Origin: Candidatus Hinthialibacter antarcticus
GTDB taxonomy: Bacteria > Hinthialibacterota > Hinthialibacteria > Hinthialibacterales > Hinthialibacteraceae
Reading direction: 5' to 3'
DNA: 64,000 bases
Assembly: GCA_030765645.1 (NCBI GenBank)
Contig: JAVCCE010000072.1
Span: forward strand, 1-64,000
The position numbers and the translations under genes are program-made. Under the pieces are notes generated by a model. It was not told where the DNA came from. It was given only the letters and a program-made list of their open reading frames with translations, and ran no database searches. Within the stretch, counting starts at the first letter, position 1, and each line of letters starts with the position of its first letter. Of the stretch, positions 8,682 through 44,102 are shown one piece after another.

Positions 8682-8859
8682 ATATCAAATCTTTAATTTA
8701 GGTTAAATTAATGGTGATCGACCCACAATTCACAAAGAACAAAGGGAAGAGTATTGCTTATTTTCAATGCTATATGTCACCTATAACAATTTTAGCACAA
8801 ACCTCACAGTCCAAAAGTATTTTCTGAACTTATTTGCAAAAAGTCTCTCTATTGGTTGG

Positions 8860-11327: not shown

Positions 11328-11484
11328 GGTTCGTCCCTCATGTAATCTCGGCTAAGATGCCGCGAATCCTGGACAATGTATTGTCCGATTCCGTTGATTG
11401 TGGTTAAATGCATGTATATTCTCCACATCTTTATTAATCGGCCTCAATCGCTGAATATTAAATCTAGGGTAACTTGATAATCGT

Positions 11485-12886: not shown

Positions 12887-13080
12887 AATCCACAGTTTCA
12901 TTGATTTATCCACCAGTTAAGTTTACATAATATATATTATGCGAATATGAGGTGCGGTTTTTTAATCCGCCTCTGCAATGAACTTTCTGTCTTTTTTCAT
13001 TCCTTTCTCCCTTTAAAATCGTAATACAGAACGAATACTATGGATTGCAAATCCAGATAGATACCGTTGAGGAGCGTATA

Positions 13081-14490
13081 ATGAGAGTTTGGGTTTTCCT
13101 GTTTGCAGTTGGGTTCTTGATTTCACCTGCTTTTTCAGAACCAACCACCGATTTAGCCCAGCATGACGCTGAGACGAAATTAATCGTCTTGCAAAATCCC
13201 TATCTGCAGGTGTTTCTTTCCTACGATAACCAGATTCACTTGCAGTCAATTACATATAGCAACCAGCCCTTCCTGCGGGTTCCTGATGGCGCTTCTTTTC
13301 CAACAGGCTCAAGGCTCAAATTGTATAAGAAGCATCCCAAGGAATCGCGCGAAGAGTATGCCCTGCCAAATAAATATACCGCGCAGGTTGTTTCGGATGG
13401 CGAAAAATCAAAGATTGATATCCAAGGCCAGGATGGACCGGTATTCCAAATTCAGAGTTCTTACCTCTTTAAGCAAAACGAATCAACGCTTTATATTGAA
13501 TCCAAAATCACCAATCAGTCTGACGAGACGATTGAATTTTATCCCAGCGAAGAAAATGTCTATAGCACCGAATTCGGCGTTAGTGGGATGTTAAATCCTT
13601 ATTTTCGCTTATATGCACCGGTTTCTGATGAGATTTCTTCTGTCACGGATATGAAATTTCTATCTGGAAGTCCTGGAGATAAGCAATTTAAACTCGATAA
13701 AGATAAAGGGATTTTTGAATTGAAGCATGAACGCCGTGGAGCGGAATTCATGTTTACGAGAGATGAAAACTGGCTTGCTGCGGCTACCGTTCGCGATATT
13801 GTTAAAAAAACAGGAATGGTGTGTAGCGTCGATTATAAATTCAATAAACCTCTTGAAAATGTTAAAGATAACGTGATAGTCCTCTTAAGCAATTTTAGCA
13901 AGGATAATAAAATATCTACAGACAAGCAGGGTGTGCTTCGAGGTATTAAACCGTTATCAACTCATGTCACCTATGTTCATGGAAAAGTGCGGTTAGCGGC
14001 GGGTGAATCTATCTCCTACAAACAAACTTGGGGGTTGGGATCAAGCATTTTACCGATAACGACTGTAGAAAATGGGATTGCTTATTTCAGGCGCCTGGAA
14101 GCGTATAAAGTTGAGAACGGCTTTGCGCTGTTTTCGATTTCAACCAACCCCGCTAAAGGTACAGCGGCGTTTCAATGCGTTGGCGATGATGGACTTCCCT
14201 TCCGAACGGATACAGTCGTTGTACTGAACCCATTAAATCCTGGCATGGGAACGACGGAAGTCGAAGCCAATCTCCCACTGGTGGTTTCCAGTAATTATAA
14301 TTTTGGCATCGTTCTGCCCGCAACTGCACCGCAAATAGCAGAATTAAGAGGATTTGCGACGCAAGAAACCCCGTCGATTACAAAATCATTGCGGTTTGTG
14401 ATTTTAGACCCGGAGACTGATGAGCCGATCCGCATCATTGATGAGGTCGAAGGCCCTTGGAAGGATTATGCCCCAGGAGTGATTAAATAG
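13081..14490 (+). CDS. Secreted orphan protein, probably beta-rich (469 aa)
   Basis: Not assigned to a family. The start chosen is ATG 13081, preceded by GAGGAG; it gives a clean signal peptide (MRVWVFLFAVGFLISPAFS-E), so the mature protein is periplasmic or surface exposed. The frame is open upstream to 13045, but those residues would sit before the signal peptide. The mature protein reads as alternating beta strands (LQVFLSYDNQIHLQSITYSN, STLYIESKITNQSDETIEFY), reminiscent of mutarotase-like or YidC periplasmic beta-sandwich folds, but no catalytic motif is evident. It ends 3 bp from the convergent lptG gene. There is no operon partner. Confidence 0.78.
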   Translation: MRVWVFLFAVGFLISPAFSEPTTDLAQHDAETKLIVLQNPYLQVFLSYDNQIHLQSITYSNQPFLRVPDGASFPTGSRLKLYKKHPKESREEYALPNKYTAQVVSDGEKSKIDIQGQDGPVFQIQSSYLFKQNESTLYIESKITNQSDETIEFYPSEENVYSTEFGVSGMLNPYFRLYAPVSDEISSVTDMKFLSGSPGDKQFKLDKDKGIFELKHERRGAEFMFTRDENWLAAATVRDIVKKTGMVCSVDYKFNKPLENVKDNVIVLLSNFSKDNKISTDKQGVLRGIKPLSTHVTYVHGKVRLAAGESISYKQTWGLGSSILPITTVENGIAYFRRLEAYKVENGFALFSISTNPAKGTAAFQCVGDDGLPFRTDTVVVLNPLNPGMGTTEVEANLPLVVSSNYNFGIVLPATAPQIAELRGFATQETPSITKSLRFVILDPETDEPIRIIDEVEGPWKDYAPGVIK

Positions 14491-16742: not shown

Positions 16743-16889
16743 AGTCGCTCTAGATCAAGAATCCCTGTAAGACTGTAACCGCCTGCCCGCTCAGTTGGAC
16801 GGCCCGGTAAATGCGTCCACTTGGTAGATGGGAATCTTCTTCATTCGGGTTCGCTTTCCGCAATAACTTCAATACGGTATCCTACTGTT

Positions 16890-18500
16890 GTGAGTAGACA
16901 AATCCCAGCGATTCAACCCAAATTGATTCTCTTAGCGGCAGTTCCCTGTCTGGCGTTTGCAGCATGGTTCTATTCATTTTCTTTTGGCCTGGTTGATGAT
17001 GCGTATATCCCGCTGGTTTATGCGCGCAATTTTCTGGCGGGACACGGCATTGTGTTTTACCCCGGCGGCGAGGAAGTGGAAGGGTTCACAAGCCCATTCT
17101 GGTTTTTGTTAATGGCGCTGATGGGTTTGTTTGGCGCCCCACTGCCAAGCGCGGCGAATGTGGTTAGTTTGATTTGTGGTTTTCTCTCGTTGCTTTCAGT
17201 TTTCTATATCTATCGCGATTTGTTTTGCGAAAATTCTCAATTCAATCTATGGCCCATGCTGGCTGCTGCGGCTTTGGCGTCAGATGTTGGTTTTGCTGCA
17301 TGGTCTTCGTCAGGGCTGGAGACTTCCCTGTTCGCGCTTGTTCTTCTTTGGTTATTTTGGTTGTATGAAACAAAGCGTCCTGCCTGGGCTATTTTTTTAT
17401 GCCTGCTGGCGGCTTCGTTGTCTCGCCCCGAAGCGGTACTTTTTATTGTTCCAATCAGCATTGGATTGTTGCTGCGCGGGAACTGCAAGAAGGCGCTGGT
17501 TTCAGGGCTGATCTTTTGGTTGCTCCCTCTCGTTATATTTGAAGTGGGGCGTTATCTCTATTTCGGCGTCTGGCTTCCCAATACATTTTATGCAAAACAC
17601 GACTTTGGCGGGTTGCAATTATTGCATCGTGGTTTCAGTTATTTATACACCTTTCTGGTTCCGCGCCCATTGTTATGGATCGCGACTTTGTGGCTGCTGT
17701 TTTCATGGGAAGACCGAAAGACGGCCTTGCGCTGGTGGGGGTGGATTGGAGTCTATGTGATTGGCGTCGTTGCTGAAGGCGGCGACCATTTTGCCCTGCA
17801 CCGATTTTTTGTTCCGATTTTACCGCTATGGACGATGGCTGCCGTTCGAGTGATTCAAATGGGCTATCAAAAATTATTGCAATACGTCGCTTCCAGCAAA
17901 CATCAAAAATTAAACGTCGTATGCGTTGTGTTGGCTGGGCTCAGTTTGTATGCGTATTCATGGCAATTATTCCATTATGAAGATCGCGACGCCTATCGGT
18001 TTTCGACCGGCGCCCGGCGATATTTAAGCGAAGTCGAATGGACAAAAAATTGGCTCTTAATAGGAGAATGGCTTAAGCGACGCTATCCCGAAAATACTGT
18101 AATTGCTGTGACGACTGCGGGAGCGATCCCGTATTCGAGTGAGTTGCTCTGCATTGACATTTTTGGACTCAACACACGAGAGATTGCTCATACGCCGGTC
18201 TCTGACCGGGAACGTCTCTACGCCGGGCATGAAAAAAGCAACCCGGACTATGTATTCGGGCGAAAGCCTGCGTTTATTCAGCTATTTCCCCTTCTGTTCT
18301 TTTCCTCGCGTGAATATCCTTTTGCAGGAGCCTATCACAGCGAAGATGCGCGGCGGGAATGGCTTGAATCAATGTTAACATTTCACGCGCAGATTGATTT
18401 GTGGAACCATTCAGCGTTTCAAGAACAATACGCGTTTAAAACTTTGGAAACCGAACACGGGTTCATCTCTATTTTCGAGCGGAAGGATTTTTATGACTGA
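16890..18500 (+). CDS. GT-C-type membrane glycosyltransferase
   Basis: Predicted polytopic inner-membrane glycosyltransferase that uses a polyprenyl-phosphate sugar to build a cell-surface glycan. The signature is the periplasmic loop after the first helix: GLVDDAYIPLVYARNF, with the catalytic-type Asp pair, followed by GHGIVFYPGGEEVEGFTSPF. That pattern is shared by mycobacterial AftB-like enzymes and many uncharacterised bacterial proteins. About ten hydrophobic helices follow, then a soluble C-terminal domain (about 390-536). I chose GTG 16890 (MSRQIPAIQPKLILL), just before the first helix; the frame is open further back to a TTG at 16821. No strong ribosome site is visible for either. The stop overlaps the next gene by 8 bp. 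Donor and acceptor are unknown. Confidence 0.82.
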   Translation: MSRQIPAIQPKLILLAAVPCLAFAAWFYSFSFGLVDDAYIPLVYARNFLAGHGIVFYPGGEEVEGFTSPFWFLLMALMGLFGAPLPSAANVVSLICGFLSLLSVFYIYRDLFCENSQFNLWPMLAAAALASDVGFAAWSSSGLETSLFALVLLWLFWLYETKRPAWAIFLCLLAASLSRPEAVLFIVPISIGLLLRGNCKKALVSGLIFWLLPLVIFEVGRYLYFGVWLPNTFYAKHDFGGLQLLHRGFSYLYTFLVPRPLLWIATLWLLFSWEDRKTALRWWGWIGVYVIGVVAEGGDHFALHRFFVPILPLWTMAAVRVIQMGYQKLLQYVASSKHQKLNVVCVVLAGLSLYAYSWQLFHYEDRDAYRFSTGARRYLSEVEWTKNWLLIGEWLKRRYPENTVIAVTTAGAIPYSSELLCIDIFGLNTREIAHTPVSDRERLYAGHEKSNPDYVFGRKPAFIQLFPLLFFSSREYPFAGAYHSEDARREWLESMLTFHAQIDLWNHSAFQEQYAFKTLETEHGFISIFERKDFYD

Positions 18501-29713: not shown

Positions 29714-31774
29714 ATGAAAAACCGCATAGTCTGGATGGCGTTTGTCGCATTCATTACGTCCTTCGTCGCCCCTTATGGATGGAGCGCTCTTGTTGTCGGG
29801 CCGTTTCTTCAAGAGATGGCGCCTGACGGCGTTACCGTTGTTTGGGAAACGCAGGAAGAAGTAATCGGAACCGTTCAAATTGGGCAGAATGAATTTGAGC
29901 GCTCAGCCAGCGACGCCAAGCCGACAAAAATTCACCGGATTCGGTTGAACGGGCTGAAAGCCAGTACGCTGTATTCGTACCGCTGTCGCTGGAATGACCA
30001 GATCACCGATACCTTTACCATTAAAACTGCGCCTCCGCGCGGTGGAGACGGCGTCAAATTAGCCGTAATCGGCGGGACGTCTGGAAATTTAGAAACGACT
30101 ACTCGTCTGGTCGCTCAATTGAGCAAGACGCAATCGGACCTGATCTTTCATGCTGGCGGCATGGTCTCGCAACCAACCAGCGCAATGGCATGGAAAAATG
30201 AATTTCTTAAACCATTCGGCAATCTGATTTCGATGACGCCGTTTGAATGTCTACTTACAAATTTCAATCAACGCCCGATTCCGTTCGCCTATTTAGGCGT
30301 CGACAAAACGTATAATTCATTTGAATATGGAAACATTTTAGTCGTTCGGTTGGATGATTCACTCACTGGCGAATCGGCGCAAACTCAGATTCAGTGGTTA
30401 GAAGAGACGCTTCGTACAACGCAACAAAAATGGGCCATTGTGTTTTTTCAAGACCCGTTATTCTCTGCAAAACCCACTCGAAGTATTTCATCAAACCGTT
30501 GGCAATGGCAGCCCATCTTACAAAAATATCGGGTGGACCTGGCAATCAGCAGCGCCGACCATTTTTATCATCGGAGCTATCCAATTGGATATGTTGAAGG
30601 CTATCCGCAATACGGCGTTTGTCACATTAACGCGGGCGGCGGAGCGGCCCTTGAGCCGTCGGTTTTGTACGATTACACCGCGTTTCGCGAGAGTCGATAT
30701 CACTTTTTAACCATCGAAACGCAAGGCGACCGGTTGTTGGTGCGCGCCATTGACGAAAACGGTCGGGGGTTTGATTCATTTGTCCGAGACAAAAACGGCG
30801 GTTCGAGCGCCAATGAATTCGTCTCATTTGAAATGATGGAATTGCAACGGGATTTGCAAAACTGGGCGGACAAAACATTTTATAACTGGAGTACAATTGA
30901 GTTTCACGGTGAAGCTAAAATGCCAACGGCGTTTCAGATTCCCTTGCGTGGTACGCTTACTTGGGAGGGCGGCGCTGATTGGACCATTCAACCACGAAGC
31001 CAACAAAATCTTCGCATTGCGCCGCAGTCTGACTTCACATTTAATTTCACGGCAGCCTACACGCGTCTCGAACAAATCTTTCCACTTCCACAACTGCATT
31101 TTCAATTGGAATATGATGCGTACCTTCAAGATTATCGCAATCCTTTGCGGGGATTTCGCAATCATAAGATTTCGCTTTCGCCGTTGCAGGTGGTGAAGCC
31201 AACTGCGTACGAAATTCCTAAAGCGTCGGGCCGAATTGATCGCGCCGGGTCTGTTGAACCCAGCTGGGCAAAGGCGTTATACGTCGATGAACTTTTTATT
31301 AATAAAACGGGCGCCGCGCCAAAACATACTACGCGAGTTGGTTTTTTGCATGACGGCGCATTTATTTATATTTATGCGAAAATGCTTCAAGACCCGTCCT
31401 TTGTTCCCCGCTCTTCCGCCTATAACGGCCTAGACTCTTCCGTATTATTTGGGAACGAACATCTCCGTTTTTCGCTGCGAAATGGTCAGGATGTTTTTAC
31501 CTTCTTGCTTTCATCCAACGGCGAAACGCTTGAAAGCAAGAACGGCGATACGTCATGGAATGTTGAGTGGGACGCCGCCGCCGTGCTTGCGACTGACGCA
31601 TGGGAAGCGGAAATAAAAATCCCCATCAGTGAAATCGCTGGCGGCGCCAACGGCTTAAGGATGAACATCGCCCGTTATGACGCTTTGGCCAACGAAACCA
31701 GCACATTGATCCCTTCATTTGCGCGGTCAGGTTCAGACGCCTTACACATGGCTACCGTGACGTTCGCTCCGTAA
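29714..31774 (+). CDS. Secreted purple-acid-phosphatase-fold protein lacking metal ligands, with C-terminal CBM9/DOMON-like domain
   Basis: A 686-aa exported protein (signal peptide about residues 1-25). Residues about 25-110 resemble the fibronectin-like N-domain of purple acid phosphatases (GPFLQEMAPDGVTVVWET). Residues about 112-350 follow the phosphatase fold, but the metal-binding positions are replaced: GGTSGN near 119 where GDxG is expected, FHAGGMV near 145 for the GD site, no GNH motif, FFQDPLF near 243 for HxP, and SSADHFYHRSYPI near 278 for GHxH. The C-terminal 150 residues resemble a CBM9/DOMON beta-sandwich (VGFLHDGAFIYIYAKM, WEAEIKIPISEI). So it is probably a non-catalytic or altered-function relative. 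The last 33 bp overlap the convergent glycosyltransferase gene. Confidence 0.8.
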   Translation: MKNRIVWMAFVAFITSFVAPYGWSALVVGPFLQEMAPDGVTVVWETQEEVIGTVQIGQNEFERSASDAKPTKIHRIRLNGLKASTLYSYRCRWNDQITDTFTIKTAPPRGGDGVKLAVIGGTSGNLETTTRLVAQLSKTQSDLIFHAGGMVSQPTSAMAWKNEFLKPFGNLISMTPFECLLTNFNQRPIPFAYLGVDKTYNSFEYGNILVVRLDDSLTGESAQTQIQWLEETLRTTQQKWAIVFFQDPLFSAKPTRSISSNRWQWQPILQKYRVDLAISSADHFYHRSYPIGYVEGYPQYGVCHINAGGGAALEPSVLYDYTAFRESRYHFLTIETQGDRLLVRAIDENGRGFDSFVRDKNGGSSANEFVSFEMMELQRDLQNWADKTFYNWSTIEFHGEAKMPTAFQIPLRGTLTWEGGADWTIQPRSQQNLRIAPQSDFTFNFTAAYTRLEQIFPLPQLHFQLEYDAYLQDYRNPLRGFRNHKISLSPLQVVKPTAYEIPKASGRIDRAGSVEPSWAKALYVDELFINKTGAAPKHTTRVGFLHDGAFIYIYAKMLQDPSFVPRSSAYNGLDSSVLFGNEHLRFSLRNGQDVFTFLLSSNGETLESKNGDTSWNVEWDAAAVLATDAWEAEIKIPISEIAGGANGLRMNIARYDALANETSTLIPSFARSGSDALHMATVTFAP

Positions 31775-32941
31775 GCATTGGTAGCGTTCTTCCAGTTTTT
31801 GGCCCAATGATGTGTAATTGTGATTTTGTATAACATAATTCCGGGCCGCTTGCCCAAGACTTTTTTGTAAAGCGGGCGACTCTTGCAGCCGTTGAATACA
31901 GTCGACAAATTCATTAGGCGTATCGGCGAACAATACATGTTTGTCGTGTTCTACATTAATTCCCTCTGCGCCAAGTTTGGTTGTTATTATGGGCATTCCC
32001 GCCGCCATTGCCTCTAACAGCTTATTGCGTACGCCCGCCGCCACCCGCAACGGGCATAGATAAATATCGTCGGCGAATAGTTGTTCTTCCATCTGCGGCG
32101 CGTTTGCGACCAAGAGGATTCCCTGTTGACCGTCAAGTTTGCAGATTTCATCTTGCGGGCGCGTCCCAACCAATATGGTTTCCATCCAAGGGAAGCGCCG
32201 CCTTACTTCGGGGAGAATGTCTTCCCAATAAAAGCGGACGGAATCAATGTTAGGAAAATAGAATAGCGTCCCGGTTATAATGCAGCGGGCATTGTGATCG
32301 CTTGCGTGGCGGCGTGGTTGAAACTGTTCGGAGTCTACGCCGTTGGCGATGACGTCGATGGAAATTCCCGGGGTGTTCTGTCGAAATACTTCGGCGTCGA
32401 TGGATGAGCAAACCAAAGCGGCGGAAGATTCGCGTACCAATTTTCGTTCATAGTTTGGGATCGAAAACAGTTCCCAGGCATCAATCAATCGTTCTTTGAT
32501 TGATCGTCTGAAACGAAAGGAGCGTTTGAGATATAGAGGCAATGAATCAGTAAAGTCTAACATCGCAGGGGCATGGGCTTCGTTCATGTATTGCCCCATC
32601 CGCAAGCGATCAAAATGAACGACATCGTATTGTTCTTCTTTTGCCGCTTGACGAATGACGCGACGAAAGTGATTCGAGCAACACCAGGATGCGCGCAACG
32701 GTCGGCGAAGAAACAGCCCAAGTGCGCATTGCAGAACTGAATTCAGCGGTTGAATGGGGTGAACGTATTTTACCGTGACTCCCATCGAGGCGAGGTGGTC
32801 GATGTCGGCTTGAGATTGGTTTTTCAACTTCATGCAGATGAGATGGGTTTCATGTCGCTGGCTGATGTATTTCAAAAAATTATAGGGCCGCCGACCATCG
32901 GTTTGAGTGGGGATCACCGGCGTGACATAGAGTATTTTCAT
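31742..32941 (-). CDS. GT1/GT4-type glycosyltransferase (exopolysaccharide type)
   Basis: A 399-aa GT-B glycosyltransferase. It starts MKILYVTPVIPTQTDGRRP, like the TIGR03087 sugar transferases of exopolysaccharide loci. The nucleotide-sugar half includes IDVIANGVDSEQFQPR, GTLFYFPNIDSVRFYW, and the late EX7E-type stretch (VAAGVRNKLLEAMAAGMPII). It is the most downstream gene of a minus-strand run of glycan/lipid-type genes. Its C-terminal codons overlap those of the convergent secreted protein by 33 bp, which leaves no room for a terminator. Donor and acceptor are unknown. Confidence 0.9.
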   Translation of the reverse strand: MKILYVTPVIPTQTDGRRPYNFLKYISQRHETHLICMKLKNQSQADIDHLASMGVTVKYVHPIQPLNSVLQCALGLFLRRPLRASWCCSNHFRRVIRQAAKEEQYDVVHFDRLRMGQYMNEAHAPAMLDFTDSLPLYLKRSFRFRRSIKERLIDAWELFSIPNYERKLVRESSAALVCSSIDAEVFRQNTPGISIDVIANGVDSEQFQPRRHASDHNARCIITGTLFYFPNIDSVRFYWEDILPEVRRRFPWMETILVGTRPQDEICKLDGQQGILLVANAPQMEEQLFADDIYLCPLRVAAGVRNKLLEAMAAGMPIITTKLGAEGINVEHDKHVLFADTPNEFVDCIQRLQESPALQKSLGQAARNYVIQNHNYTSLGQKLEERYQCLRSERHGSHV

Positions 32942-32989: not shown

Positions 32990-34312
32990 TTAGCGTTGCC
33001 ATTGCTGACCGACAATTTCAGCGATTTGTTGAGCCAATCGTGTTTGGCCTAATTCATTAAAATGACAACAATCATCGACGTAAACGGTTTCAGTTTCTTC
33101 ATGAAATAACAAGGTGAGGTCAAAAAAGTCGACGCCGGATTCTTGTAATTCTTGCCCCAACTTGACCAGCATCGGGTAGCCCGCCGTCGCTGGGTCTTTG
33201 AAGACAAAATTGTTGATGAAGCGTTCTTTTTCATCATCAGACAATGGCTTCGAGTTTGGCAGGTATTGGTTCGGCTGTAAAAAATGATAATACGCAACGC
33301 CGCGCTGTTTGCATAAAGCGTCCATTTGAAGTGAGCACGTTTTCCAGAAACGCGCCATTTCATCCAAGCCGTCATCCATTGTTTCAAATCGTGGTTTCGG
33401 GCCTTTGGCTAAATAGGCAACGTCTTTTAATTCATAGGTCTCAATTTGGATGGTTAATTCTCCCCTATGCGCTGAAAAATTGCGGTCGCGAAGATGCCAA
33501 ATCCAATTCAAAGTTGGGCTTAATTTTAACACGGGCAGGTTAAACCAATTCAGCCAGTGCACCCGTTGTTTGCTGAGGAATTCTTTTTCGCCGATCATGG
33601 TTAGCAGCTCTTTATTTAACACGCCTGCCATTAGCATGTCCCAGCGGCGAGGGTAGTAAGGGCTGATGCTGCTCGGCCAATTTTCTGCAACGGGAAGCAC
33701 CAGATCGTTGAAGCCGTCCAGGTTCATGACGAGATCAAATTCCGCGCCCATCGCGAGAAGCATGTTAAGAATGAGAAGTTGCTGCGGTTGTTTGTAGCCG
33801 CCGCTGCATCCCCGCCAGATACGAATCTCTTTGTCAGCGAACGCGGGGAATTCTTTGAGCGTCTTGGTAAATTCTGGTTCGCCGAAATCGCCGAAATGTT
33901 CTGCAACCGAGCCGCCGGTCAGTAGGATGTTGAATGCGCCCTCTTCTTTTTTGGGGACGTAATTTTGCATTTCAAACAGGTCGAAGTAATTGACTTCGCC
34001 TTTTCTGGGCGCACGCAGCATTTTGGGCAGGCTGAGCGAGTCGCGCACCATGCCAAAGTAAGGATGCAGTACGTAGACGCGCGGGATCAGGTTCTCAGGT
34101 TCGGGATCGTAATATTGAACGTCAGTGCGAAAATCGGCGTCGGTTTCGACGCGCTGTTTGATTTTGCTGAAGTGTTGAAAGAGATTGAATTCGCCAAAAT
34201 GGATTGCGCCTGCGATGTAGGCGATGGATTCAATACCGAGATAAAGCAGGCAGAGTAAAATCGCCGTGAAGAGATACTTACGTGATTTGCTGCGCTTGGG
34301 TTCCTGGCTCAT
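32990..34312 (-). CDS. Membrane-anchored SGNH/GDSL-type hydrolase or acyl-esterase
   Basis: Predicted single-pass membrane protein (one helix near residues 12-32 after a Lys/Arg-rich start) with a periplasmic SGNH hydrolase domain. The nucleophile block is LLTGGSVAEHFGD near 130 (GGS in place of GDS), a further block is NLDGFNDLV near 198, and the His block is YVDDCCHFNELGQTRLAQQI near the C-terminus (DxxH). Such proteins in polysaccharide loci commonly add or remove acetyl groups. It lies 48 bp upstream of the glycosyltransferase gene on the same strand, which supports a role in modifying a surface glycan. The specific reaction is inferred. Confidence 0.78.
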   Translation of the reverse strand: MSQEPKRSKSRKYLFTAILLCLLYLGIESIAYIAGAIHFGEFNLFQHFSKIKQRVETDADFRTDVQYYDPEPENLIPRVYVLHPYFGMVRDSLSLPKMLRAPRKGEVNYFDLFEMQNYVPKKEEGAFNILLTGGSVAEHFGDFGEPEFTKTLKEFPAFADKEIRIWRGCSGGYKQPQQLLILNMLLAMGAEFDLVMNLDGFNDLVLPVAENWPSSISPYYPRRWDMLMAGVLNKELLTMIGEKEFLSKQRVHWLNWFNLPVLKLSPTLNWIWHLRDRNFSAHRGELTIQIETYELKDVAYLAKGPKPRFETMDDGLDEMARFWKTCSLQMDALCKQRGVAYYHFLQPNQYLPNSKPLSDDEKERFINNFVFKDPATAGYPMLVKLGQELQESGVDFFDLTLLFHEETETVYVDDCCHFNELGQTRLAQQIAEIVGQQWQR

Positions 34313-34640: not shown

Positions 34641-36089
34641 TTACCCTTCGCCGTCCATGATTTCTTGCAGCGTAGGTTTATGGAGAGTGGATTTGAGCAA
34701 GGTGTAGCCGTTTTGCATGGCGCGCCAGGCTTCGCGCGGGGTGCGTACGTCAGCGGCTTTGCGCCACAGGTACGATGGGCGCAGGTGGAAGTCGCGAATC
34801 GCCTGGTTGCGTAATTCAATCACTCGCTCGCCGGCAATCGAACCAATCTGCATTTGCGGAAACGCGCTCGCGCTGGAGTTATCAACGCTATCTACGTTTT
34901 TATCCACCCAGCCTTTTTTGATTGCCTCCGCTCGCAAGTCGGTCCCCATGCGCGGCGCCGCGACGTTGATGGAAAGAAAATCGGGATCGAGTTGCTGTGT
35001 GAATTCGATGGTGCCCTTGGCGGTGTCTTCGGTTTCGCCGGGCAATCCCAAAATGAAATGCGCCAAAGTACGGATGCCCAACTTGCGGCATAAGGCAAAT
35101 GTCTGACGTACGCGTTCCGGCTCGATATCTTTTTCAATCGAATTCAATATGCCCTGGTCAGCGGATTCAACCCCAAATTGAATGGTATGGCAGCCCGCCC
35201 GCGCCATCAGCGTCAGCAGTTCTTCATCCATCACGTCAACGCGCGAAAGCGTGACCCAGTCGAATTTCAGATTTTCCGCCAACATGCGTTCCAGGAATTC
35301 GACGGTATGGGTGCGGGTGACGCCAAAGGTCAGGTCTTTAATCCACAGTTCATGGATGCCGAGCGTCTTGAGGTAATGAAGTTCCTGAATGGCGTTATCA
35401 ATGTCGCGCAGTTTGTGCGTCCACTTTCCATTGAAGCAGAAATTGCAACGATAGGGACAGCCGAAGTCGGTCAGAAAGGAGGCAAATACGCGCCGCCTGC
35501 CGTGGGGGATTCGATATTTCGAGTTTGGGATCAGGTCATATCGCGGCAAGGGGAACGTGTAATAACGGTTGCCGGGATCAACGCCGCGAATAAATTCGTC
35601 GCCTTTGCGGAACAGAATATTTGGAATCGGGTCGCTGGTTTCAATTTCGCCTTTGTCGGCGTTCCAGGCTTTGAAAAATGGATCGAGGCTGTGCGAAGTG
35701 AAATTGAGCAACACGCCTGCCAGCCAGCGGTGGCGGGTCATTAGTTCCCTGCCCTTACTGACCATCACGTCGCCGGTCCCAACCACCGCGACGGATTTCG
35801 GGATGCGTAGGCTCTCAAGAAAGGCGAGGTCTTCTTTGTAGCAAACGCCGCCCGTTAAAAAGACGATGCCGTCTGGTTTGATGCGCCAGATGCGTTCTGC
35901 GGCGGCCTCATTCGAGAGTTTCAATACGTTTGCATCGAGATACTCCACTTCAAAATGCCGCGCCAGTACGCCGCTCTGCACGACGAGGTCGTAGGGGTGC
36001 CAATAGTAGTACCCTTTTGCCGTATGGCTGCAATAATAATCGCGCAAATACGGCTTATCGGCGGGCGGGTTGAGAAGCAGAATCTTCAT
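34641..36089 (-). CDS. B12-binding-domain radical SAM enzyme (copy 1)
   Basis: A 482-aa class B radical SAM protein. The N-terminal half (about 1-150) is a cobalamin-binding-type Rossmann domain, starting MKILLLNPPADKPYLRDYY. The radical SAM cluster motif is GCPYRCNFCFNGKW (CxxxCxxC, near residue 215), followed by ELWIKDLTFG, CHTIQFGVES and THFILGLPGE-like AHFILGLPGE. Relatives perform methylations or ring and chain rearrangements in lipids, hopanoids, pigments and antibiotics. A paralogue lies 24 bp upstream; both end with an RxFxLRPxY-type segment. Together with nearby flavoprotein and GT genes this suggests a lipid- or glycan-modifying cluster. Substrate unknown. Confidence 0.92.
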   Translation of the reverse strand: MKILLLNPPADKPYLRDYYCSHTAKGYYYWHPYDLVVQSGVLARHFEVEYLDANVLKLSNEAAAERIWRIKPDGIVFLTGGVCYKEDLAFLESLRIPKSVAVVGTGDVMVSKGRELMTRHRWLAGVLLNFTSHSLDPFFKAWNADKGEIETSDPIPNILFRKGDEFIRGVDPGNRYYTFPLPRYDLIPNSKYRIPHGRRRVFASFLTDFGCPYRCNFCFNGKWTHKLRDIDNAIQELHYLKTLGIHELWIKDLTFGVTRTHTVEFLERMLAENLKFDWVTLSRVDVMDEELLTLMARAGCHTIQFGVESADQGILNSIEKDIEPERVRQTFALCRKLGIRTLAHFILGLPGETEDTAKGTIEFTQQLDPDFLSINVAAPRMGTDLRAEAIKKGWVDKNVDSVDNSSASAFPQMQIGSIAGERVIELRNQAIRDFHLRPSYLWRKAADVRTPREAWRAMQNGYTLLKSTLHKPTLQEIMDGEG

Positions 36090-36112
36090 ATATTATTGTA
36101 TCCTGAACCGGC

Positions 36113-37531
36113 TTACGCCACTAAATCTTTTAACTGGCGCAAGCCGTAGATCATGTAATTTTTGAACACGGTCGGCGATGGATTGCTAGTCAGGGTTCGG
36201 AAAATATAGCCGGGACGCAGATAGAAAGAACGCAACGCTTCTTTGCGTAGCGGCTTGAGTTCGTCCAGAGTCAGGTGCTTGGTTGCAATCGCCGGGCTGT
36301 TATAGGCGGCGTGAGGCAAGGTTCCTTCTTCCAGCAAACCTTCTTTGACCGCGATTTCGTAAAATTCGGTCCCGTAGAATGGATAAGTATAGAAAAATTC
36401 AACGAAATCAGGATCGAGTTGGCGGGCAAACGCTTTGGTTTTTTCGAAGGTTGAGCGGCTTTCCCAAGGCAAGCCAATTAAGAAATAAACGCTGGTTTTA
36501 ATGCCGACTTTTTTACAAAGTTGGATCGCCGGTTCGATTTTGTCGTAATCGAGTTGCTTACGCATCAATTCGAGCATTTCCGGGTCGCCGTGTTCGACGC
36601 CGAAGGCGATCAGCCAGCAGCCAGACTTACGCATCTCGACCAGCATGTCTTCTTCGAGGGTGTCGATGCGGCTATTGCATGACCATTTGATGTCAAGTTT
36701 TTCTGCTTGAATGGCCTGGCAGAGTTCTTTGACCCAGGTTTTTTTAGCGGTGAATAAATCGGAACGGAACAGAAAATTGCGAATGCCGTGTTTCTCGACG
36801 CATTCTTTGATTTCCGCTAGCACATTTTGGGGCGAGCGCGTTCGCACTTTGTTGCCGGATACCTTTGGCGCCAAGCAGTAGATACAGGAAAACGGGCAAC
36901 CGCGGCTGGTGACGATGGTAGTTTGAAGTTCTTCGGTATCGGGGCGGATATAGATCGAGTTGTCTATTAAGTGACGCGCTGGAAATGAAATATCATCAAT
37001 ATCTTGAATAAATGCCCGTTCGGCGTTTCGTACGGGGCCTTCCGTTGTTCTGTGAGTAATTCCAGCCACTTCATGCCAAGGTTTTCCGCTTGACAAATCG
37101 CCCAGAGTTTCTTCATATTCACCGCGCACAACGATGTCAATTTGCGGATACAACTTCATCGCTTCGTGATCGAGATGTTTGAAGTGGGCGCCTTTGCAAA
37201 TCGTGATGATGTTTGGGTTGATCTCTTTGGCAATGGCGGCGGCTTTCACGTCATCCGCCAGAGTGGGGGTCGTAATTGATAAGATTAGCGCATCGGGTTG
37301 AAATTCTTGTAGATTGCGTCGAAAAGAATCCCAGTTCAGGTCTTTAGCCGGGTAATCCTGAACGAGGCATTCCACCCCGGCTTTTTCGAGTGCACCAGCG
37401 ACGTATAGTAAGTCAATTGGAGGCCGCAACGCGACCGTGTGCAGCTCGTCCAGCGGCGTCTGACAGCGGTCTTCGCGAATATATTTTCCCGTCGGAGGGA
37501 CGGCTAAATAGGCTTTTTTCCAGGCGTTCAT
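36113..37531 (-). CDS. B12-binding-domain radical SAM enzyme (copy 2)
   Basis: A 472-aa paralogue of the next gene, with an N-terminal B12-type domain (PPIDLLYVAGALEKAGVE, VVRGEYEETL) and the cluster motif RGCPFSCIYCLAPKV near residue 217. Further radical SAM features are LIAFGVEHGDPEML and TSVYFLIGLPWESR. The C-terminal RSFYLRPGYIFRTL matches the paralogue's RDFHLRPSYLWRKA, a tail seen in BchE/HpnJ-like enzymes. It is first in the pair, 140 bp downstream of the flavoprotein gene. Two consecutive enzymes of this type imply two steps on one precursor, but the substrate is unknown. Confidence 0.92.
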   Translation of the reverse strand: MNAWKKAYLAVPPTGKYIREDRCQTPLDELHTVALRPPIDLLYVAGALEKAGVECLVQDYPAKDLNWDSFRRNLQEFQPDALILSITTPTLADDVKAAAIAKEINPNIITICKGAHFKHLDHEAMKLYPQIDIVVRGEYEETLGDLSSGKPWHEVAGITHRTTEGPVRNAERAFIQDIDDISFPARHLIDNSIYIRPDTEELQTTIVTSRGCPFSCIYCLAPKVSGNKVRTRSPQNVLAEIKECVEKHGIRNFLFRSDLFTAKKTWVKELCQAIQAEKLDIKWSCNSRIDTLEEDMLVEMRKSGCWLIAFGVEHGDPEMLELMRKQLDYDKIEPAIQLCKKVGIKTSVYFLIGLPWESRSTFEKTKAFARQLDPDFVEFFYTYPFYGTEFYEIAVKEGLLEEGTLPHAAYNSPAIATKHLTLDELKPLRKEALRSFYLRPGYIFRTLTSNPSPTVFKNYMIYGLRQLKDLVA

Positions 37532-37671
37532 TTGAGACGAAAGTCCTTCCAGGCCCTTATACCTGTTTCCAGGTATCTAGCATTTCTTAAGTTTGAATCT
37601 ATTTTGGGTTCAATCAAGACCGTTTCGGTAAACTTTTGTGAAATCTTGTCATTGCTTATATAAACGCTTAT

Positions 37672-39066
37672 TTAATCCACGATCCGATAATCCTTAAACT
37701 GGTCAGTTTTTTGATACCAACTATCGAGGTTGATTGATTCACCTACGAGTTGTTCCGCCGCCAACAACCCCATCTGAATAGACTGGTCAATATTGTTATG
37801 GCGGAACAATCCCTGTCTTCCCGTTGTCAAAATATTCTTCTGTTCTGCGACGGCGTTCAGGACAGTATGAAGATTATCTTCGTATTCTGTTTGATAAACA
37901 GGGTATCCCTCTTTAATGTGGACTGTCTTGATTTCCGTTGGCTCACGCGGAGTCAGACCGCTGGCGTATAACACCTCAGATGCGTGATTGGATAAGAGTT
38001 CTGGCGCGGCGTTCCAGGTTTCGTCATTGTATTCACAGGTAAATTCAACGCAGATACAAGTTTTGTTCTCATACGTTTTATGTGGATTAAAATTATCCGG
38101 GACGCTAGCTCGTGTAAACCGTACATGCTCTTCGGGGTAATAGAGCCAGGTATCTTCAATGGGTAATGTCTCGCCGTACATCAAGTATAGCAAAACAATC
38201 GCTCGGAATTTCAGCGCTTGGGCGGCGGTAATTACATTTTCATCTGCGTCAATCAAATCGACGAGGTTTGGCAGCGGGACCGTAGAAACGACCACATCAC
38301 AAGCGTGGCTTAATTCACCGTCCGGGCTGGATGTAATGACTTCGGATACGCCGTTTTCATTTTGATTTAGCCGTAAGACATCTTGATTTAAATAAAACTT
38401 TCCGCCGCGCTGGGTGATTTCTGCAGCGAACTTTTCAGCGATTTCGCCGATGCCGTTTTGCGGATAGAGAAACTGCGCGACATAAGTTTCCTGTTTGGAG
38501 AAGAACCCGTCCAGCAACGAATGCCAGATCGATTCGCCGCGCAGGCGGACGCGCGCGGTGTCTGCGGCAATTTGGCTGGGGTCGATTCCCCACACTTTAC
38601 GCGCAAACGGGGCGAAGATGGCTTCGTATAGCCGTGCGCCGTAATAACGTGAAACATACTCCTGATAGGATTTTGCCTCGGCGCCGCTATGAAAGAATAC
38701 GCTTAACGCTGAGAGGCCAAACAGGATGGAATTCAGCGGCCCTAACGCTTGGAAGGTCGGCAGCGCCTTGATGGGATAGGGGATGTAGCGCCCATTGATC
38801 CACATGCGGCTGGAACGCTTGACCTTTACCATTTTCTCTTCACAAAATGCGCGGACGAATTCTTTGATCTCAGGGATTTCGGTATGAAAGCGGTGGGGGC
38901 CGAGGTCGAGCCGGTAGCCGTTCCAGTCGATGCTTTTCGCCAGCCCGCCAATGACGTTTTCGCGTTCAATGATGACCACGTCTTCATCCGGGCGCAGTTG
39001 CAAGAGTTTCCAGGCGGTTGCGAGTCCGGCGATTCCCGCCCCTAAGATTACGGTGCGTCGGCTCAT
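37672..39066 (-). CDS. FAD-dependent NAD(P)-binding oxidoreductase (UDP-galactopyranose mutase / protoporphyrinogen oxidase-like)
   Basis: A 464-aa flavoprotein. The dinucleotide-binding loop is TVILGAGIAGLATAWKLLQL, followed by VIGGLAKSIDWNGYRLDLG and PHRFHTEIPEI, a stretch resembling UDP-galactopyranose mutases and related amine-oxidase-fold enzymes in glycan loci. Near the C-terminus TTGRQGLFRHNNIDQSIQMG is the usual second FAD contact (GRxGLFRYxNMDxS pattern). Its ATG overlaps the upstream GT2 stop by 4 bp (ATGA), so the two are translated together, arguing for a joint role, for example remodelling a lipid-linked sugar. The exact reaction is unresolved. Confidence 0.88.
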   Translation of the reverse strand: MSRRTVILGAGIAGLATAWKLLQLRPDEDVVIIERENVIGGLAKSIDWNGYRLDLGPHRFHTEIPEIKEFVRAFCEEKMVKVKRSSRMWINGRYIPYPIKALPTFQALGPLNSILFGLSALSVFFHSGAEAKSYQEYVSRYYGARLYEAIFAPFARKVWGIDPSQIAADTARVRLRGESIWHSLLDGFFSKQETYVAQFLYPQNGIGEIAEKFAAEITQRGGKFYLNQDVLRLNQNENGVSEVITSSPDGELSHACDVVVSTVPLPNLVDLIDADENVITAAQALKFRAIVLLYLMYGETLPIEDTWLYYPEEHVRFTRASVPDNFNPHKTYENKTCICVEFTCEYNDETWNAAPELLSNHASEVLYASGLTPREPTEIKTVHIKEGYPVYQTEYEDNLHTVLNAVAEQKNILTTGRQGLFRHNNIDQSIQMGLLAAEQLVGESINLDSWYQKTDQFKDYRIVD

Positions 39067-39830
39067 AGCGCCTGCCTTCGGTCAATGATAGGCGGATTGG
39101 CTTTTTTCACGCTCCAAAAGAGACGCACTTTCAGAATGGTCCAGACCGCGACCACAAAGTCGGGCCAGCCAATTTTTTTGCCTTCCGCCACGGTGCGCGC
39201 TTTGAAGGTGACGGGCACTTCGAGGATGGGAACGCCCAGTTTCATCATCTTGCTGGTCACTTCCGGGCAAAATTCAAAGCCCCGGCATTCAAGCGAAATG
39301 CGTTCGATGGCGTTTCGGTGAAACGCTTTGTACGCCGTCGCTTCGTCGGTGATGCGTTGACCAAAAAGTATCGAGACCATCCGGGCAAGCAGCCAGTTCG
39401 CCACCCGGTTCGCTACCCGCATCCCTTTGACTGTTCCCATAAAACGGGACCCAAAACAGACTTGGGTTTTACCATCGGCGATGGGTTGGACGACGTTGAT
39501 GATCTCGCCCGGTTCATACTCTAAATCCGCATCTTGAATGATGACGATGTCGCCGGTGAAGTAGCGAAGCCCGCTGCGAATGGCGGCGCCTTTGCCCATG
39601 TTGGTTTCGTGTTTTAAAACAATCGTGTTCGGCTGGTTTTTTTCCGGTTCCAGAATGGCTTCGGTGCGGTCTGTGGAGCAGTCGTTTACCAGGATGATTT
39701 CCTTATTAGACCAATCAATCGAACGCACCCGCTTCAATACTTCGGGAAGCGACTCTTCCTCATTATAAATGGGAATGATAATCGACAATTTGGGCGGCTT
39801 TGTCTCTTGCACGCAATCGGCCTCGTTCAT
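39063..39830 (-). CDS. GT2 glycosyltransferase, dolichol-phosphate-mannose-synthase-like
   Basis: A 255-aa GT-A enzyme that likely transfers a sugar from a nucleotide donor to a polyprenyl phosphate. Features: LSIIIPIYNEEESLPEVLKR at the N-terminus, EIILVNDCSTDRT, the metal site QDADLEYEPGE (DxD), and GFEFCPEVTSKMMKLG near the acceptor site. It lacks the C-terminal membrane helices of some relatives. It overlaps the flavoprotein gene by 4 bp. Polyprenyl-phosphate sugars of this kind are the donors used by GT-C enzymes such as the one at 16890, though that connection is only plausible. Confidence 0.92.
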   Translation of the reverse strand: MNEADCVQETKPPKLSIIIPIYNEEESLPEVLKRVRSIDWSNKEIILVNDCSTDRTEAILEPEKNQPNTIVLKHETNMGKGAAIRSGLRYFTGDIVIIQDADLEYEPGEIINVVQPIADGKTQVCFGSRFMGTVKGMRVANRVANWLLARMVSILFGQRITDEATAYKAFHRNAIERISLECRGFEFCPEVTSKMMKLGVPILEVPVTFKARTVAEGKKIGWPDFVVAVWTILKVRLFWSVKKANPPIIDRRQAL

Positions 39831-39908: not shown

Positions 39909-41084
39909 TTACAAAGGCTTGCGCAGAACAGCAAAGCCGATGCTGGAAGGCGATAGTGTATCGGTTTTTTGCGCCAGTCGGTAGAACATCAGGCTAAGCA
40001 GCGGTTGAAAGGGGCGCATTACCGCCCGGGAAATTGAGGGTTGCAGCCGATTGAAATAGTTGCGAAATGGAATGCAGCAATCATCATAAAAGCCGGAAGA
40101 AAGCGTTTCCCATTCCGCCGACTGAATGAGACGTTCGTTCAGAGTTTTCTCTGAATAATTGCGGCAGAACAGTTCTTCGATCTGCTGATGTTCATTGCCG
40201 ATCTGGAAGCCGATTTCATAGGGCAGTTCAATCCATTCTTCAAAATGCTCGCGGTTGCCTTCGACGGTAATCGCTGCAACGCCGCCGGGTTTGAGAATGC
40301 GGTAGATTTCACGCATTGCGGTTTTGTCTGCATCATAAGGAAGATGTTCGATCATACACAAGGCCGAAACTCCATTGAACGATGAATCGCAAAATGGCAA
40401 GCGTGTGACGTCCCCGCATATAAATTGCGCGCTGCCGCCGTCGCGATGTTGAATACCGCGCAACGAGGGAAATCCATACATCGAGCCATCCAGCGCAATG
40501 ACCTCAGCCCCGAATCGAGACCAGTAGACGGGCAGGCTGTTGTTTCCCGCGCCAAGGTCTAGGATGCGGGCGCCGCGTTGCTGAAACGGCATTGCATTGG
40601 AGGCAATCAATATTTCACGCGCTTTGTGATAGGCAAGGCAGGCTTGTTGGGTTTTTGCGGGCGCTGGTTTGAGCGTATTGATAAAGCGACTCAAAGAAAA
40701 ATATGATTGCTTCGTAAACAATTCACAGAGTTTTAAACTTAGAATTAAAAATGGAAATGCGAGAGCGTAATACGTGTTGTGCGCTGAAGTGTGTGTAGTG
40801 AAATTCACTCTTGGGCAAGATAAAATATGTTTTTGTATTTCATGGAGCAACTGTTGAGCATTCTCATCGGCGTCGCCTGTTTTGGTCATTGCTTTGAGCA
40901 AAACTTCTGCGCGGCGCCAGCGCTTTTGTTGATAGTAAAAATATCCTAGATGCCCCATCAGTTCCGCCGAAGCGGGATTGTGCGCGAGTCCGTCATTCAG
41001 CGTTTGTTCAACGAGTTGAAGGTTCCCCTCATCAGCATATTGCTGCGCTTGCTCAAGAATTGATTGGATATTCTGGTTTGTCAT
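39909..41084 (-). CDS. TPR plus SAM-dependent methyltransferase
   Basis: A 391-aa protein with two parts. Residues about 1-85 form one or two TPR-like repeats (LEQAQQYADEGNLQLVEQTL, LGYFYYQQKRWRRAEVLL). Residues about 165-300 are a class I methyltransferase: ARILDLGAGNNSLPVYW (motif I), AEVIALDGSM, QFICGDVTRLPFCDSSFNGV and MREIYRILKPGGVAAI. The start chosen is ATG 41084 (MTNQNIQSILEQ); a longer frame to 41162 would run into the family A repeat and is unlikely. It is upstream of the GT2 gene by 78 bp on the same strand. Likely substrate: a surface glycan or lipid, by context only. Confidence 0.85.
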   Translation of the reverse strand: MTNQNIQSILEQAQQYADEGNLQLVEQTLNDGLAHNPASAELMGHLGYFYYQQKRWRRAEVLLKAMTKTGDADENAQQLLHEIQKHILSCPRVNFTTHTSAHNTYYALAFPFLILSLKLCELFTKQSYFSLSRFINTLKPAPAKTQQACLAYHKAREILIASNAMPFQQRGARILDLGAGNNSLPVYWSRFGAEVIALDGSMYGFPSLRGIQHRDGGSAQFICGDVTRLPFCDSSFNGVSALCMIEHLPYDADKTAMREIYRILKPGGVAAITVEGNREHFEEWIELPYEIGFQIGNEHQQIEELFCRNYSEKTLNERLIQSAEWETLSSGFYDDCCIPFRNYFNRLQPSISRAVMRPFQPLLSLMFYRLAQKTDTLSPSSIGFAVLRKPL

Positions 41085-41436
41085 AAATTTTGGTTCTTCC
41101 GTAAATTGGATACTTTTTATATCAATTGAATTGAGGTTTCGCTGTATATGGCATGGGTGCAACTCTGCTTGCTTCAGTGCGGGCTTTCAGGCCCTTATGC
41201 ACAGGCGCTCCCAGAGTTGTACCCATGCCTGAATCGGTTTGTCATTTTTTGATAGGCCGAAATACGTTTTATAGTGTTTGCCAGAATTATGTGCGGTTTG
41301 AGTTTCCATAACTGTATTTATCGCTAAGTCCCACGGGCGCGCTTTCCGCGCATGTTTTTGACAAACGCTCTCGTAACCAAAATCATGGCCATCCATCAAT
41401 GTAATACTCACGTATCGGATGAACCTAAATTTAATT
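41085..41436. other. Intergenic region holding a family A repeat
   Basis: This 352-bp gap lies between the methyltransferase and M61 protease genes. It holds the family A element at 41150-41229. The remainder (41230-41436) shows no gene with coding character; an open frame on the minus strand here runs into the protease gene in another frame and is a shadow. Confidence 0.6.
41150..41229 (+). repeat. Family A palindromic repeat, copy 4
   Basis: An 80-bp element with nearly perfect 18-bp ends (GGCATGGGTGCAACTCTG and CAGAGTTGTACCCATGCC; the single difference is a G-T wobble in RNA). The core GCTTGCTTCAGTGCGGGC is followed by an inner GGGC...GCCC hairpin and CACAGGCGCTCC. Confidence 0.9.
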
Positions 41437-43276: not shown

Positions 43277-43987
43277 TCATTTCTGTTTAAATAGATGCCT
43301 ACATGTAACTTTTGCAATTCGATACGAATCCAAGAATGGTCTCCAGGCGGAGCGCGTCGTCGCCTCCGGCGTATAGATGCACTCAATGTCGCATTCGGCG
43401 AATTGACTTTGGTTGCGCGTCGCCCACAGCGCCATCTCGGTTTCAATGGCGTATTCGCTGCTCTGAATATGCGGCAGCATGGCTTCGAGAAGCGGGCGGT
43501 TGAATAACCGAAAGCCGCTTTGAATATCATGGAGCGGGCATCCCGTCAGCTGACGGATCAACGTTGAACTGGTTTTATTCGCTAAGCGGCGAACCATCGG
43601 GGTGCTTTCCGAATCAAACCGTCTTCTCCCGACAACGAAATCCGCCCCGCTGGCATCGCGGCATTGCATCATGCGGGGAATGTCCGCCGGGTCGTGCTGG
43701 CCGTCGCTATCGAGCGTTATCAGACAATCCCAGCCCGGGCGTTCAAGCCAATAGGCGAACCCCGCTTTCAAAGCGGCGCCCTTGCCCTGGTTGGCTTCCC
43801 AGCCGATTGAATCGACGCCGCTGGATTGAATATACTTGAGGGTTTCGTCTACGCTGCCGTCATTCACGACGAGTATATTTGATGTGAATTTGCGGCAGCT
43901 CTCAATCACGCCGACCACGGCTTCGCCGCAGTTATAGCATGGCGCCACGATGGTCAAATTTGGATATGGAACAACCTGATCATTCAT
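43277..43987 (-). CDS. GT2 glycosyltransferase (polyprenyl-phosphate sugar transferase-like)
   Basis: A 236-aa GT-A enzyme with LTIVAPCYNCGEAVVGVIES, ILVVNDGSVDETL, the metal motif ITLDSDGQHDPADIPRM (DSDGQH), and GCPLHDIQSGFRLF near the acceptor site, all typical of DPM1/undecaprenyl-phosphate glycosyltransferases. The start chosen is ATG 43987 (MNDQVVPYPN); an upstream in-frame start at 44038 adds non-conserved residues. It precedes the M61 gene by 13 bp. It is the second such GT2 in this 13-kb run, the other being at 39063; the two differ clearly, so they are not a recent duplication. Confidence 0.9.
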   Translation of the reverse strand: MNDQVVPYPNLTIVAPCYNCGEAVVGVIESCRKFTSNILVVNDGSVDETLKYIQSSGVDSIGWEANQGKGAALKAGFAYWLERPGWDCLITLDSDGQHDPADIPRMMQCRDASGADFVVGRRRFDSESTPMVRRLANKTSSTLIRQLTGCPLHDIQSGFRLFNRPLLEAMLPHIQSSEYAIETEMALWATRNQSQFAECDIECIYTPEATTRSAWRPFLDSYRIAKVTCRHLFKQK

Positions 43988-44102
43988 ACTGGATAGTATA
44001 CGCCCGGATTGGTGGTGTGAATCAACCCTTGGGCGCAATTGTCCGGCGGCGTATTCTTAATCCATTGAATTAGACGAACGAAAACCAGCGATTGGAACGC
44101 GA

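What the first reader, a model, noticed from the sequence alone, without database searches (positions are those of the whole stretch)
34641..39830. Possible glycan/lipid pathway: two B12-type radical SAM enzymes beside a UGM-like flavoprotein and a GT2
Two adjacent B12-binding radical SAM enzymes share an RxFxLRPxY-type tail, next to a flavoprotein that overlaps a polyprenyl-phosphate GT2 by 4 bp. A glycosyltransferase, an SGNH hydrolase, a methyltransferase and a second GT2 are close by on the same strand. The set would suit building and then chemically modifying a lipid-linked sugar or a surface lipid. I know no named pathway with this exact gene order. This is the best candidate here for an undescribed multi-gene system.
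Basis: inference. Interest (0 to 1): 0.55.

Follow-up and report, generated by a model that had tools for sequence, protein, structure and literature searches.

The report
Conserved flavoenzyme and radical-SAM sugar pathway
Four neighbouring genes in this uncultured bacterium (a lipid-phosphate sugar transferase, a sugar-mutase-like flavoenzyme and two radical enzymes) are kept together, with a distant third radical enzyme, across a whole class of bacteria and some more distant lineages, so they probably form one undescribed route to an unusual envelope sugar.

Summary
The four-gene core GT2–flavoprotein–rSAM B–rSAM A is real: its orthologues occur in most of the 14 genomes of the class, usually adjacent. 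GT2, flavoprotein and B recur in five genomes of three other lineages; two of these also keep B next to A. The core extends beyond the window: a third radical SAM enzyme (C, sister to B) and a TPR lipoprotein lie on another contig here, but sit beside A or B–A in other families. The GT4, SGNH, methyltransferase and second GT2 genes are not kept in most relatives. The flavoprotein has the eukaryote-type UDP-galactopyranose mutase fold and keeps 4 of its 5 diphosphate-binding residues. GT2 is dolichol-phosphate-mannose-synthase-like. A and B are closest to HpnJ and AprD4, enzymes that act on sugars, but fail those families' cut-offs; only B clearly carries a B12 domain. Outside the class, A-type enzymes sit beside GT2s and PMT-type glycosyltransferases. 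Best reading: GT2 loads a sugar on a polyprenyl phosphate, and the flavoenzyme and radical enzymes rebuild it. The conserved unit is well supported; the chemistry is inferred. Hopanoid modification is unlikely: relatives without squalene-hopene cyclase keep the set.

The parts
39063..39830 (-). GT2, 255 aa: polyprenyl-phosphate sugar synthase-like family 2 glycosyltransferase, first gene of the core
   Evidence: PF00535 E 1.4e-33; best solved relative dolichol-phosphate-mannose synthase 5mlz, E 6e-20; orthologue in 14 of 14 class genomes; no hydrophobic stretch
37672..39066 (-). FLAVO, 464 aa: UDP-galactopyranose-mutase-like flavoprotein; overlaps GT2 by 4 bp
   Evidence: Nearest NCBIfam model NF005548 PRK07208; model pLDDT 84.5; Z 36.3 to T. 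cruzi UGM; diphosphate clamp 4 of 5 kept; orthologue in 13 of 14 class genomes
36113..37531 (-). rSAM B, 472 aa: B12-binding radical SAM enzyme, HpnJ/AprD4-like
   Evidence: PF02310 and PF04055 over cut-off; AprD4 best solved relative; clade of its own; 13 of 14 class genomes
34641..36089 (-). rSAM A, 482 aa: AprD4/HpnJ-like radical SAM enzyme with a Rossmann-like N-terminal domain that falls short of the B12 profile
   Evidence: PF04055; PF02310 only 16.8 bits; Z 33.0 to AprD4 6fd2; 12 of 14 class genomes
39909..41162 (-). TPR-methyltransferase: neighbour, probably accessory
   Evidence: Pfam methyltransferase domains and TPR_19; near GT2 in G000, G001, G004 and G005 only
32990..34312 (-). 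SGNH-like protein: neighbour, probably not part of the core
   Evidence: Only AlgX-like at E 0.016; kept near A only in G004
31742..32941 (-). GT4-type glycosyltransferase: neighbour, probably not part of the core
   Evidence: PF13692 E 3.7e-16; kept near A only in G004 and G001
43277..44038 (-). second GT2: neighbour, not part of the core
   Evidence: PF00535; kept near the core only in G004

Best explanation
The four window genes, with radical SAM enzyme C and usually a TPR lipoprotein encoded elsewhere in the same genome, form one conserved pathway that builds an unusual sugar on a polyprenyl phosphate for the cell envelope. Shown: co-inheritance, gene order in relatives, enzyme families, the UGM fold (as a model) with its diphosphate clamp, the B12 domain of B by profile. 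Inferred: GT2 moves a sugar from a nucleotide onto polyprenyl phosphate; FLAVO attacks the anomeric carbon of a sugar (di)phosphate with reduced flavin N5, as UGM does, and changes the ring form; B and C (B12-type) and A (AprD4-like) then make radical changes to the sugar (dehydration, ring rearrangement or C-methylation); a membrane GT-C enzyme of PMT type may transfer the product outside. The order of steps, the sugar and the acceptor are unknown.
For: Core orthologues in 12 to 14 of 14 class genomes, mostly adjacent. In 372 genomes outside the class, B (at least 50% identity) is in 5, and all 5 also have GT2 and a full-length FLAVO match. B-A adjacent in G142 and G279, GT2-FLAVO adjacent in G279. 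Trees of A, B and FLAVO all pair G142 with G279. FLAVO keeps R182, Y317, R327 and Y419 of Aspergillus UGM. GT2 is nearest DPM synthase. A-type genes outside the class sit by GT2s (10 of 54 neighbours), other rSAMs (8) and PMT_2 proteins (5). In f2, GT2 lies near a GHMP kinase and a cytidylyltransferase.
Against: No chemistry was tested. GT2 is unlinked from FLAVO in G006, G010, G012, G013 and in four of the five outside genomes. A is missing at the cut-off used from G025, G173 and G312. In f17 the B gene lies with GTP cyclohydrolase I and SAM synthetase, a cofactor-like setting. The UGM clamp is shared by most of the wider PRK07208 family I aligned, so it does not name a substrate. G274 and G192 have a full-length FLAVO match, and G123 and G129 the GT2, without B.
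Confidence: 0.5

Rival explanations
1. The set modifies a lipid chain or terpenoid (polyprenyl chain, hopanoid or membrane-spanning lipid) rather than a sugar: the rSAMs methylate, cyclise or couple the chain and the flavoprotein acts as a desaturase or oxidase.
For: FLAVO also matches protoporphyrinogen oxidase, phytoene desaturase and HpnE models weakly and PPO folds at Z about 31. Radical SAM enzymes act on hopanoids, and are proposed for ladderanes and tetraethers (PMC13142503, passages).
Against: Nearest fold and full-length sequence match are UGM, and the diphosphate clamp is kept. Squalene-hopene cyclase matches are strong only in f1 genomes, yet the core is kept in relatives without one. 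GT2 has no obvious place in chain chemistry.
Confidence: 0.2
2. The rSAMs, above all B, help make a cofactor (for example a pterin-type one), and the link to GT2 and FLAVO is by inheritance only.
For: B lies beside GTP cyclohydrolase I, a 6-pyruvoyl-tetrahydropterin synthase family protein and SAM synthetase in G312; SAM synthetase follows B in G025 and GTP cyclohydrolase I is nearby in G173. Neighbours in G142 and G279 are housekeeping genes such as the AIR synthase family and dnaA.
Against: Seen in one family (f17) only. In the class and in G142 and G279, B lies with FLAVO and/or A instead. SAM synthetase may simply supply the cofactor.
Confidence: 0.1
3. Each enzyme serves a separate pathway and the neighbourhood is coincidence.
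For: The set is split on different contigs in several genomes, and promoter-like sites are no more frequent than in shuffles (14 against 11.0, sd 3.2).
Against: Recurrent adjacency in different pairs (GT2-FLAVO, FLAVO-B, B-A, A-lipoprotein-C) in several families and lineages, and shared presence in the same distant genomes.
Confidence: 0.06

Closest known systems
HpnI-HpnK-HpnJ (bacteriohopanetetrol cyclitol ether)
   Same: A sugar is put on a lipid by a glycosyltransferase and then changed by a radical SAM enzyme (PMC12583986, passages); HpnJ is the best NCBIfam model for both A and B; HpnJ has the same kind of tail.
   Different: Scores far below the HpnJ cut-off; B and C form clades apart from HpnJ; kept in genomes without a strong squalene-hopene cyclase match; a UGM-like flavoenzyme and further rSAMs are added.
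UDP-galactopyranose mutase, eukaryote type
   Same: Fold over the full length (Z 36.3), flavin-stacking histidine and 4 of 5 diphosphate residues.
   Different: About 20% identity; fails the UGM models; Q107 and F106 not kept, N207 and N163 are Val and Ala; own C-terminal tail.
AprD4 radical SAM 1,2-diol dehydratase
   Same: Best solved relative of A and B and best fold for A (Z 33.0).
   Different: 21% identity and well below the NF033070 cut-off; substrate unknown.
Dolichol/polyprenyl-phosphate-mannose synthase with PMT-type transferases
   Same: GT2 family and nearest solved relative; PMT or PMT_2 proteins beside A-type or GT2 genes in relatives.
   Different: I know of no DPM/PMT pathway that includes radical SAM enzymes and a UGM-like protein (recalled, not tested).

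Membership tests
HpnJ (TIGR03471) | Score over the curated cut-off of 577.6 bits | tested here: not met
   A 137, B 240.3 bits
HpnJ (TIGR03471) | Occurs with hopanoid synthesis | tested here: not met
   Strong SHC matches only in G000-G005; the core is kept in G006, G007, G010, G011 and G013, which have none at E 0.001, and in G012, whose only match is weak (E 3.3e-6)
UDP-galactopyranose mutase | Curated models TIGR00031 and PF03275 over cut-off | tested here: not met
   51 against 303.75 bits; 23.2 against 26.3 bits
UDP-galactopyranose mutase | Diphosphate clamp and flavin-stacking histidine | tested here: met
   R174, Y309, R319, Y388 and H58 invariant in 12 orthologues; the fifth clamp residue is His or Tyr
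UDP-galactopyranose mutase | Converts UDP-Galp to UDP-Galf | not testable with these tools
   needs enzymology
PRK07208 (NF005548) | Score over the curated cut-off of 389 bits | tested here: not met
   316.2 bits, the nearest model
Cobalamin-dependent radical SAM enzymes | B12-binding domain PF02310 over cut-off, in B | tested here: met
   58.8 bits, cut-off 32.1
Cobalamin-dependent radical SAM enzymes | B12-binding domain PF02310 over cut-off, in A | tested here: not met
   16.8 bits; the modelled fold is of this type, binding not testable here
AprD4 (NF033070) | Score over the curated cut-off of 500 bits | tested here: not met
   A 106, B 148.9 bits
Polyprenyl-phosphate GT2 / DPM synthase | GT2 domain with DPM synthase as nearest solved relative | tested here: met
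   named NCBIfam models (AglJ and others) all below cut-off; lipid acceptor not tested

The most novel reading that the evidence does not exclude
A vertically inherited, lineage-defining envelope sugar, carbocyclic, ring-contracted or C-branched, built on polyprenyl phosphate by a UGM-like flavoenzyme and two or three radical SAM enzymes. It would be shared by a whole class of uncultured bacteria and at least three further lineages: another route, beside the hopanoid cyclitol and calditol, to lipid-linked rebuilt sugars.
Probability: 0.2. Interest if true: 0.75.

Novelty: new variant of a known kind. Interest (0 to 1): 0.5.

Why it matters
Few cobalamin-type radical SAM enzymes that do not methylate are known; [quoted passage not shown] Here two or three such enzymes and a UGM-like flavoenzyme are tied to a polyprenyl-phosphate sugar transferase by inheritance across lineages. 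That gives a defined gene set to express, a guess at the substrate class, and a possible new envelope sugar or lipid marker for bacteria known, as far as I found, only from metagenomes.

Tried and rejected
Hopanoid cyclitol pathway: rejected as the general role. Whole neighbourhood as one operon: rejected; the outer genes are not kept. 'Tail motif is a special link between A and B': rejected as a family trait. B-type proteins on plasmids: 164 records, all under 60% identity; I looked at one besides the HpnJ yardstick (Solidesulfovibrio plasmid pDCAR1), where a B-like rSAM lies in a run with an epimerase, an acyltransferase, a glycosyltransferase and a sialate O-acetylesterase. Promoter and terminator scan: not above shuffles by more than about one sd. 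Literature: nine searches showed no paper naming this gene set; one search returned none and only an unrelated Lactococcus study (search listings). All papers cited were read as passages only.

Weak points. One search holds one row (C of G173) that I translated out of frame; it fell at the root on a very long branch and is not counted. The FLAVO orthologue clade has modest support (85/59), so it rests partly on the C-terminal tail, which one class row lacks because its end is off. The 54 neighbours are my hand choice from 148 ORFs, nearest genes first, without a matched control. The lipoprotein match in G279 and G142 is weak (25% and 21% identity, 55 and 64 bits) and TPR similarity can be generic. 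A rSAM flanks FLAVO within about 1.5 kb in 12 of 12 class loci but in only 4 of 18 loci outside the class, and those 4 matched best to non-orthologous rSAMs. The identity and E-value cut-offs for the co-occurrence counts were set after seeing the lists.
Full report
What is there. The minus strand carries GT2 (39063-39830), a flavoprotein (FLAVO, 37672-39066), radical SAM enzyme B (36113-37531) and radical SAM enzyme A (34641-36089). GT2 and FLAVO overlap by 4 bp; the gaps are 140 bp (FLAVO-B), 23 bp (B-A) and 328 bp (A to the next gene). The window is a stretch of contig C72 of a 5.15-Mb assembly in 78 contigs. The only named relatives found are two metagenome contigs, WGLV01000010.1 ('bacterium isolate RI_285', 87% identical in A) and JAFGTC010000130.1 (filed as Omnitrophota, 73%); I could not place the class by name.

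Families. B has a Pfam B12-binding domain and a radical SAM domain. A has the radical SAM domain and only a sub-threshold, partial B12 match. The best NCBIfam model for both is HpnJ, far below its cut-off, and the best solved relative of both is AprD4. The predicted structure of A (pLDDT 81.8) is closest to AprD4 (Z 33.0, 416 residues, rmsd 2.9), then MgmA (27.7) and TsrM (25.4). FLAVO's nearest NCBIfam model is PRK07208, a 'hypothetical protein' model. Its predicted structure (pLDDT 84.5) is closest to Trypanosoma cruzi UDP-galactopyranose mutase (Z 36.3, 437 residues, rmsd 2.8, 20% identity), ahead of protoporphyrinogen oxidases at about 31. GT2's best solved relative is dolichol-phosphate-mannose synthase.

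FLAVO residues. I mapped the profile alignment on the ligand table of a UGM review (PMC3624792, passages). The diphosphate residues R182, Y317, R327 and Y419 of the Aspergillus enzyme correspond to R174, Y309, R319 and Y388 here, invariant in the 12 aligned orthologues. The fifth, Y453, is His in the window protein and Tyr in families f4 and f5. The flavin-stacking H63 is kept as H58, and the uracil stackers Y104 and F158 as Y97 and F151. Q107 and F106 are not kept, and N207 and N163 are Val and Ala. In a fungal test R327 was critical, and R182 and H63 contributed (PMC3893270, passages). The same clamp is seen in most of the wider family members I aligned, so it says 'binds a sugar (di)phosphate' and no more. 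The C-terminal tail (WY, then Y/F-R-I/V-V/I-D) is kept in the orthologues of genomes that have B, except one class row whose end is off; the other aligned relatives lack it in this form.

Conservation in the class (14 genomes, own included). A: 12, all but G007 and G008. B: 13, all but G008, with a cut-off copy in G009 and one broken by a TGA in G011. FLAVO: 13, all but G008, in two pieces in G009. GT2: 14. C: 14. G007, G008 and G009 are very fragmented assemblies (810 to 1270 contigs). Order: GT2-FLAVO adjacent in G000-G005, G009 and G011; FLAVO-B in G000-G007 and G010-G013; B-A in G000, G002-G004, G006, G010, G012 and G013, with one ORF between them in G001 and about 24 kb between them in G005.

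The missing members. C is the sister clade of B (100/100) and shares its N-terminal R-x-D-R-C-Q motif. In this genome it is at G000:C7:69941-71341. In G010, G012, G013 and G011 the order is A, a TPR lipoprotein or lipoprotein-like gene, then C. In all six f1 genomes a TPR lipoprotein lies just upstream of C. In G142 and G279, outside the class, the order is B-A-TPR lipoprotein.

Beyond the class. In a panel of 386 genomes (372 outside the class), B-type proteins of at least 50% identity occur in 5 outside genomes: three of one family (G025, G173, G312), G142 and G279. All 5 have GT2 (also in G123 and G129, without B) and a FLAVO match to its last residue (also in G274 and G192, without B). The hypergeometric P is 3.6e-10 each, or about 4e-6 with relatives pooled (the pooled figure uses a rough family count). 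A is present in G142 and G279 and missing, at the cut-off used, from the other three. In the larger tree A (14 rows) and B (15 rows) are clades at 100/99, and C (16 rows, with G117's copy inside) at 99/98, apart from the misframed row. G142 and G279 pair up in A, B and FLAVO, as expected of genes inherited together.

Company. Around 22 A-type genes outside the class I took 54 near neighbours of 148 ORFs: 10 have a GT2 domain, 8 radical SAM, 7 B12-binding, 5 PMT_2. PMT or PMT_2 proteins lie beside A-type genes in L192, L203, L207 and L208 (the last below the curated cut-off) and near GT2 in G002. In f2, GT2 lies by a GHMP kinase and a cytidylyltransferase (Pfam in L059, with homologues in L217 and L219). 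Against this, in family f17 the B gene lies with GTP cyclohydrolase I or SAM synthetase.

Reading. I read the set as a polyprenyl-phosphate sugar pathway in which a UGM-like flavoenzyme and radical SAM enzymes rebuild the sugar, which PMT-like enzymes may then use. That these genes belong together I hold at about 0.85. That the substrate is a lipid- or nucleotide-bound sugar I hold at about 0.6. The combined statement, including the ring or carbon chemistry, I hold at 0.5. Lipid-chain modification and a cofactor are the main rivals.

Novelty. Each enzyme belongs to a known superfamily, and HpnI-K-J offers a known parallel for 'sugar put on a lipid, then rebuilt by a radical enzyme' (PMC12583986, passages). 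The combination was not found in nine literature searches (listed under Tried and rejected). I therefore call it a new variant of a known kind.

Noticed in passing
G000:C24:11838-12674(-) and G000:C7:69192-69497(-) (gene L048:8148-8849(-)); outside the window: IspG (GcpE, PF04551) is split in two genes in this genome and in the f1, f2 and f3 relatives (G000-G009): a barrel part (about model positions 1-251) and a separate C-terminal iron-sulphur part (about 241-342). G010, G011, G012 and the five outside genomes have it in one piece, G013 has no match. In all six f1 genomes the C-terminal gene lies next to rSAM C.
   Followed up: partly
L185:7153-13472 (G274): A PRK07208-like flavoprotein (8676-10097) lies in a run with two rSAM-like genes (7153-8631 and 11985-13472) and a GT2-like gene (11034-11975). 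A second, non-orthologous case of flavoprotein plus rSAMs plus GT2.
   Followed up: no
L195:7040-8628 and L196:871-2458 (G192, G326): A UbiA-family prenyltransferase gene sits directly before a GT2 and an A-type rSAM. UbiA proteins can load sugars on polyprenyl phosphate in other bacteria (recalled).
   Followed up: no
G000:C41:4952-5902(-); outside the window: A strong squalene-hopene cyclase match (E 3.6e-145) in this genome and in the other f1 genomes. The f1 genomes may make hopanoids, apart from this gene set.
   Followed up: no
window 16821-18500(+): Membrane protein that looks like a GT-C enzyme by eye; no Pfam match at E 0.01, six hydrophobic stretches. A possible user of a polyprenyl-phosphate sugar.
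   Followed up: partly
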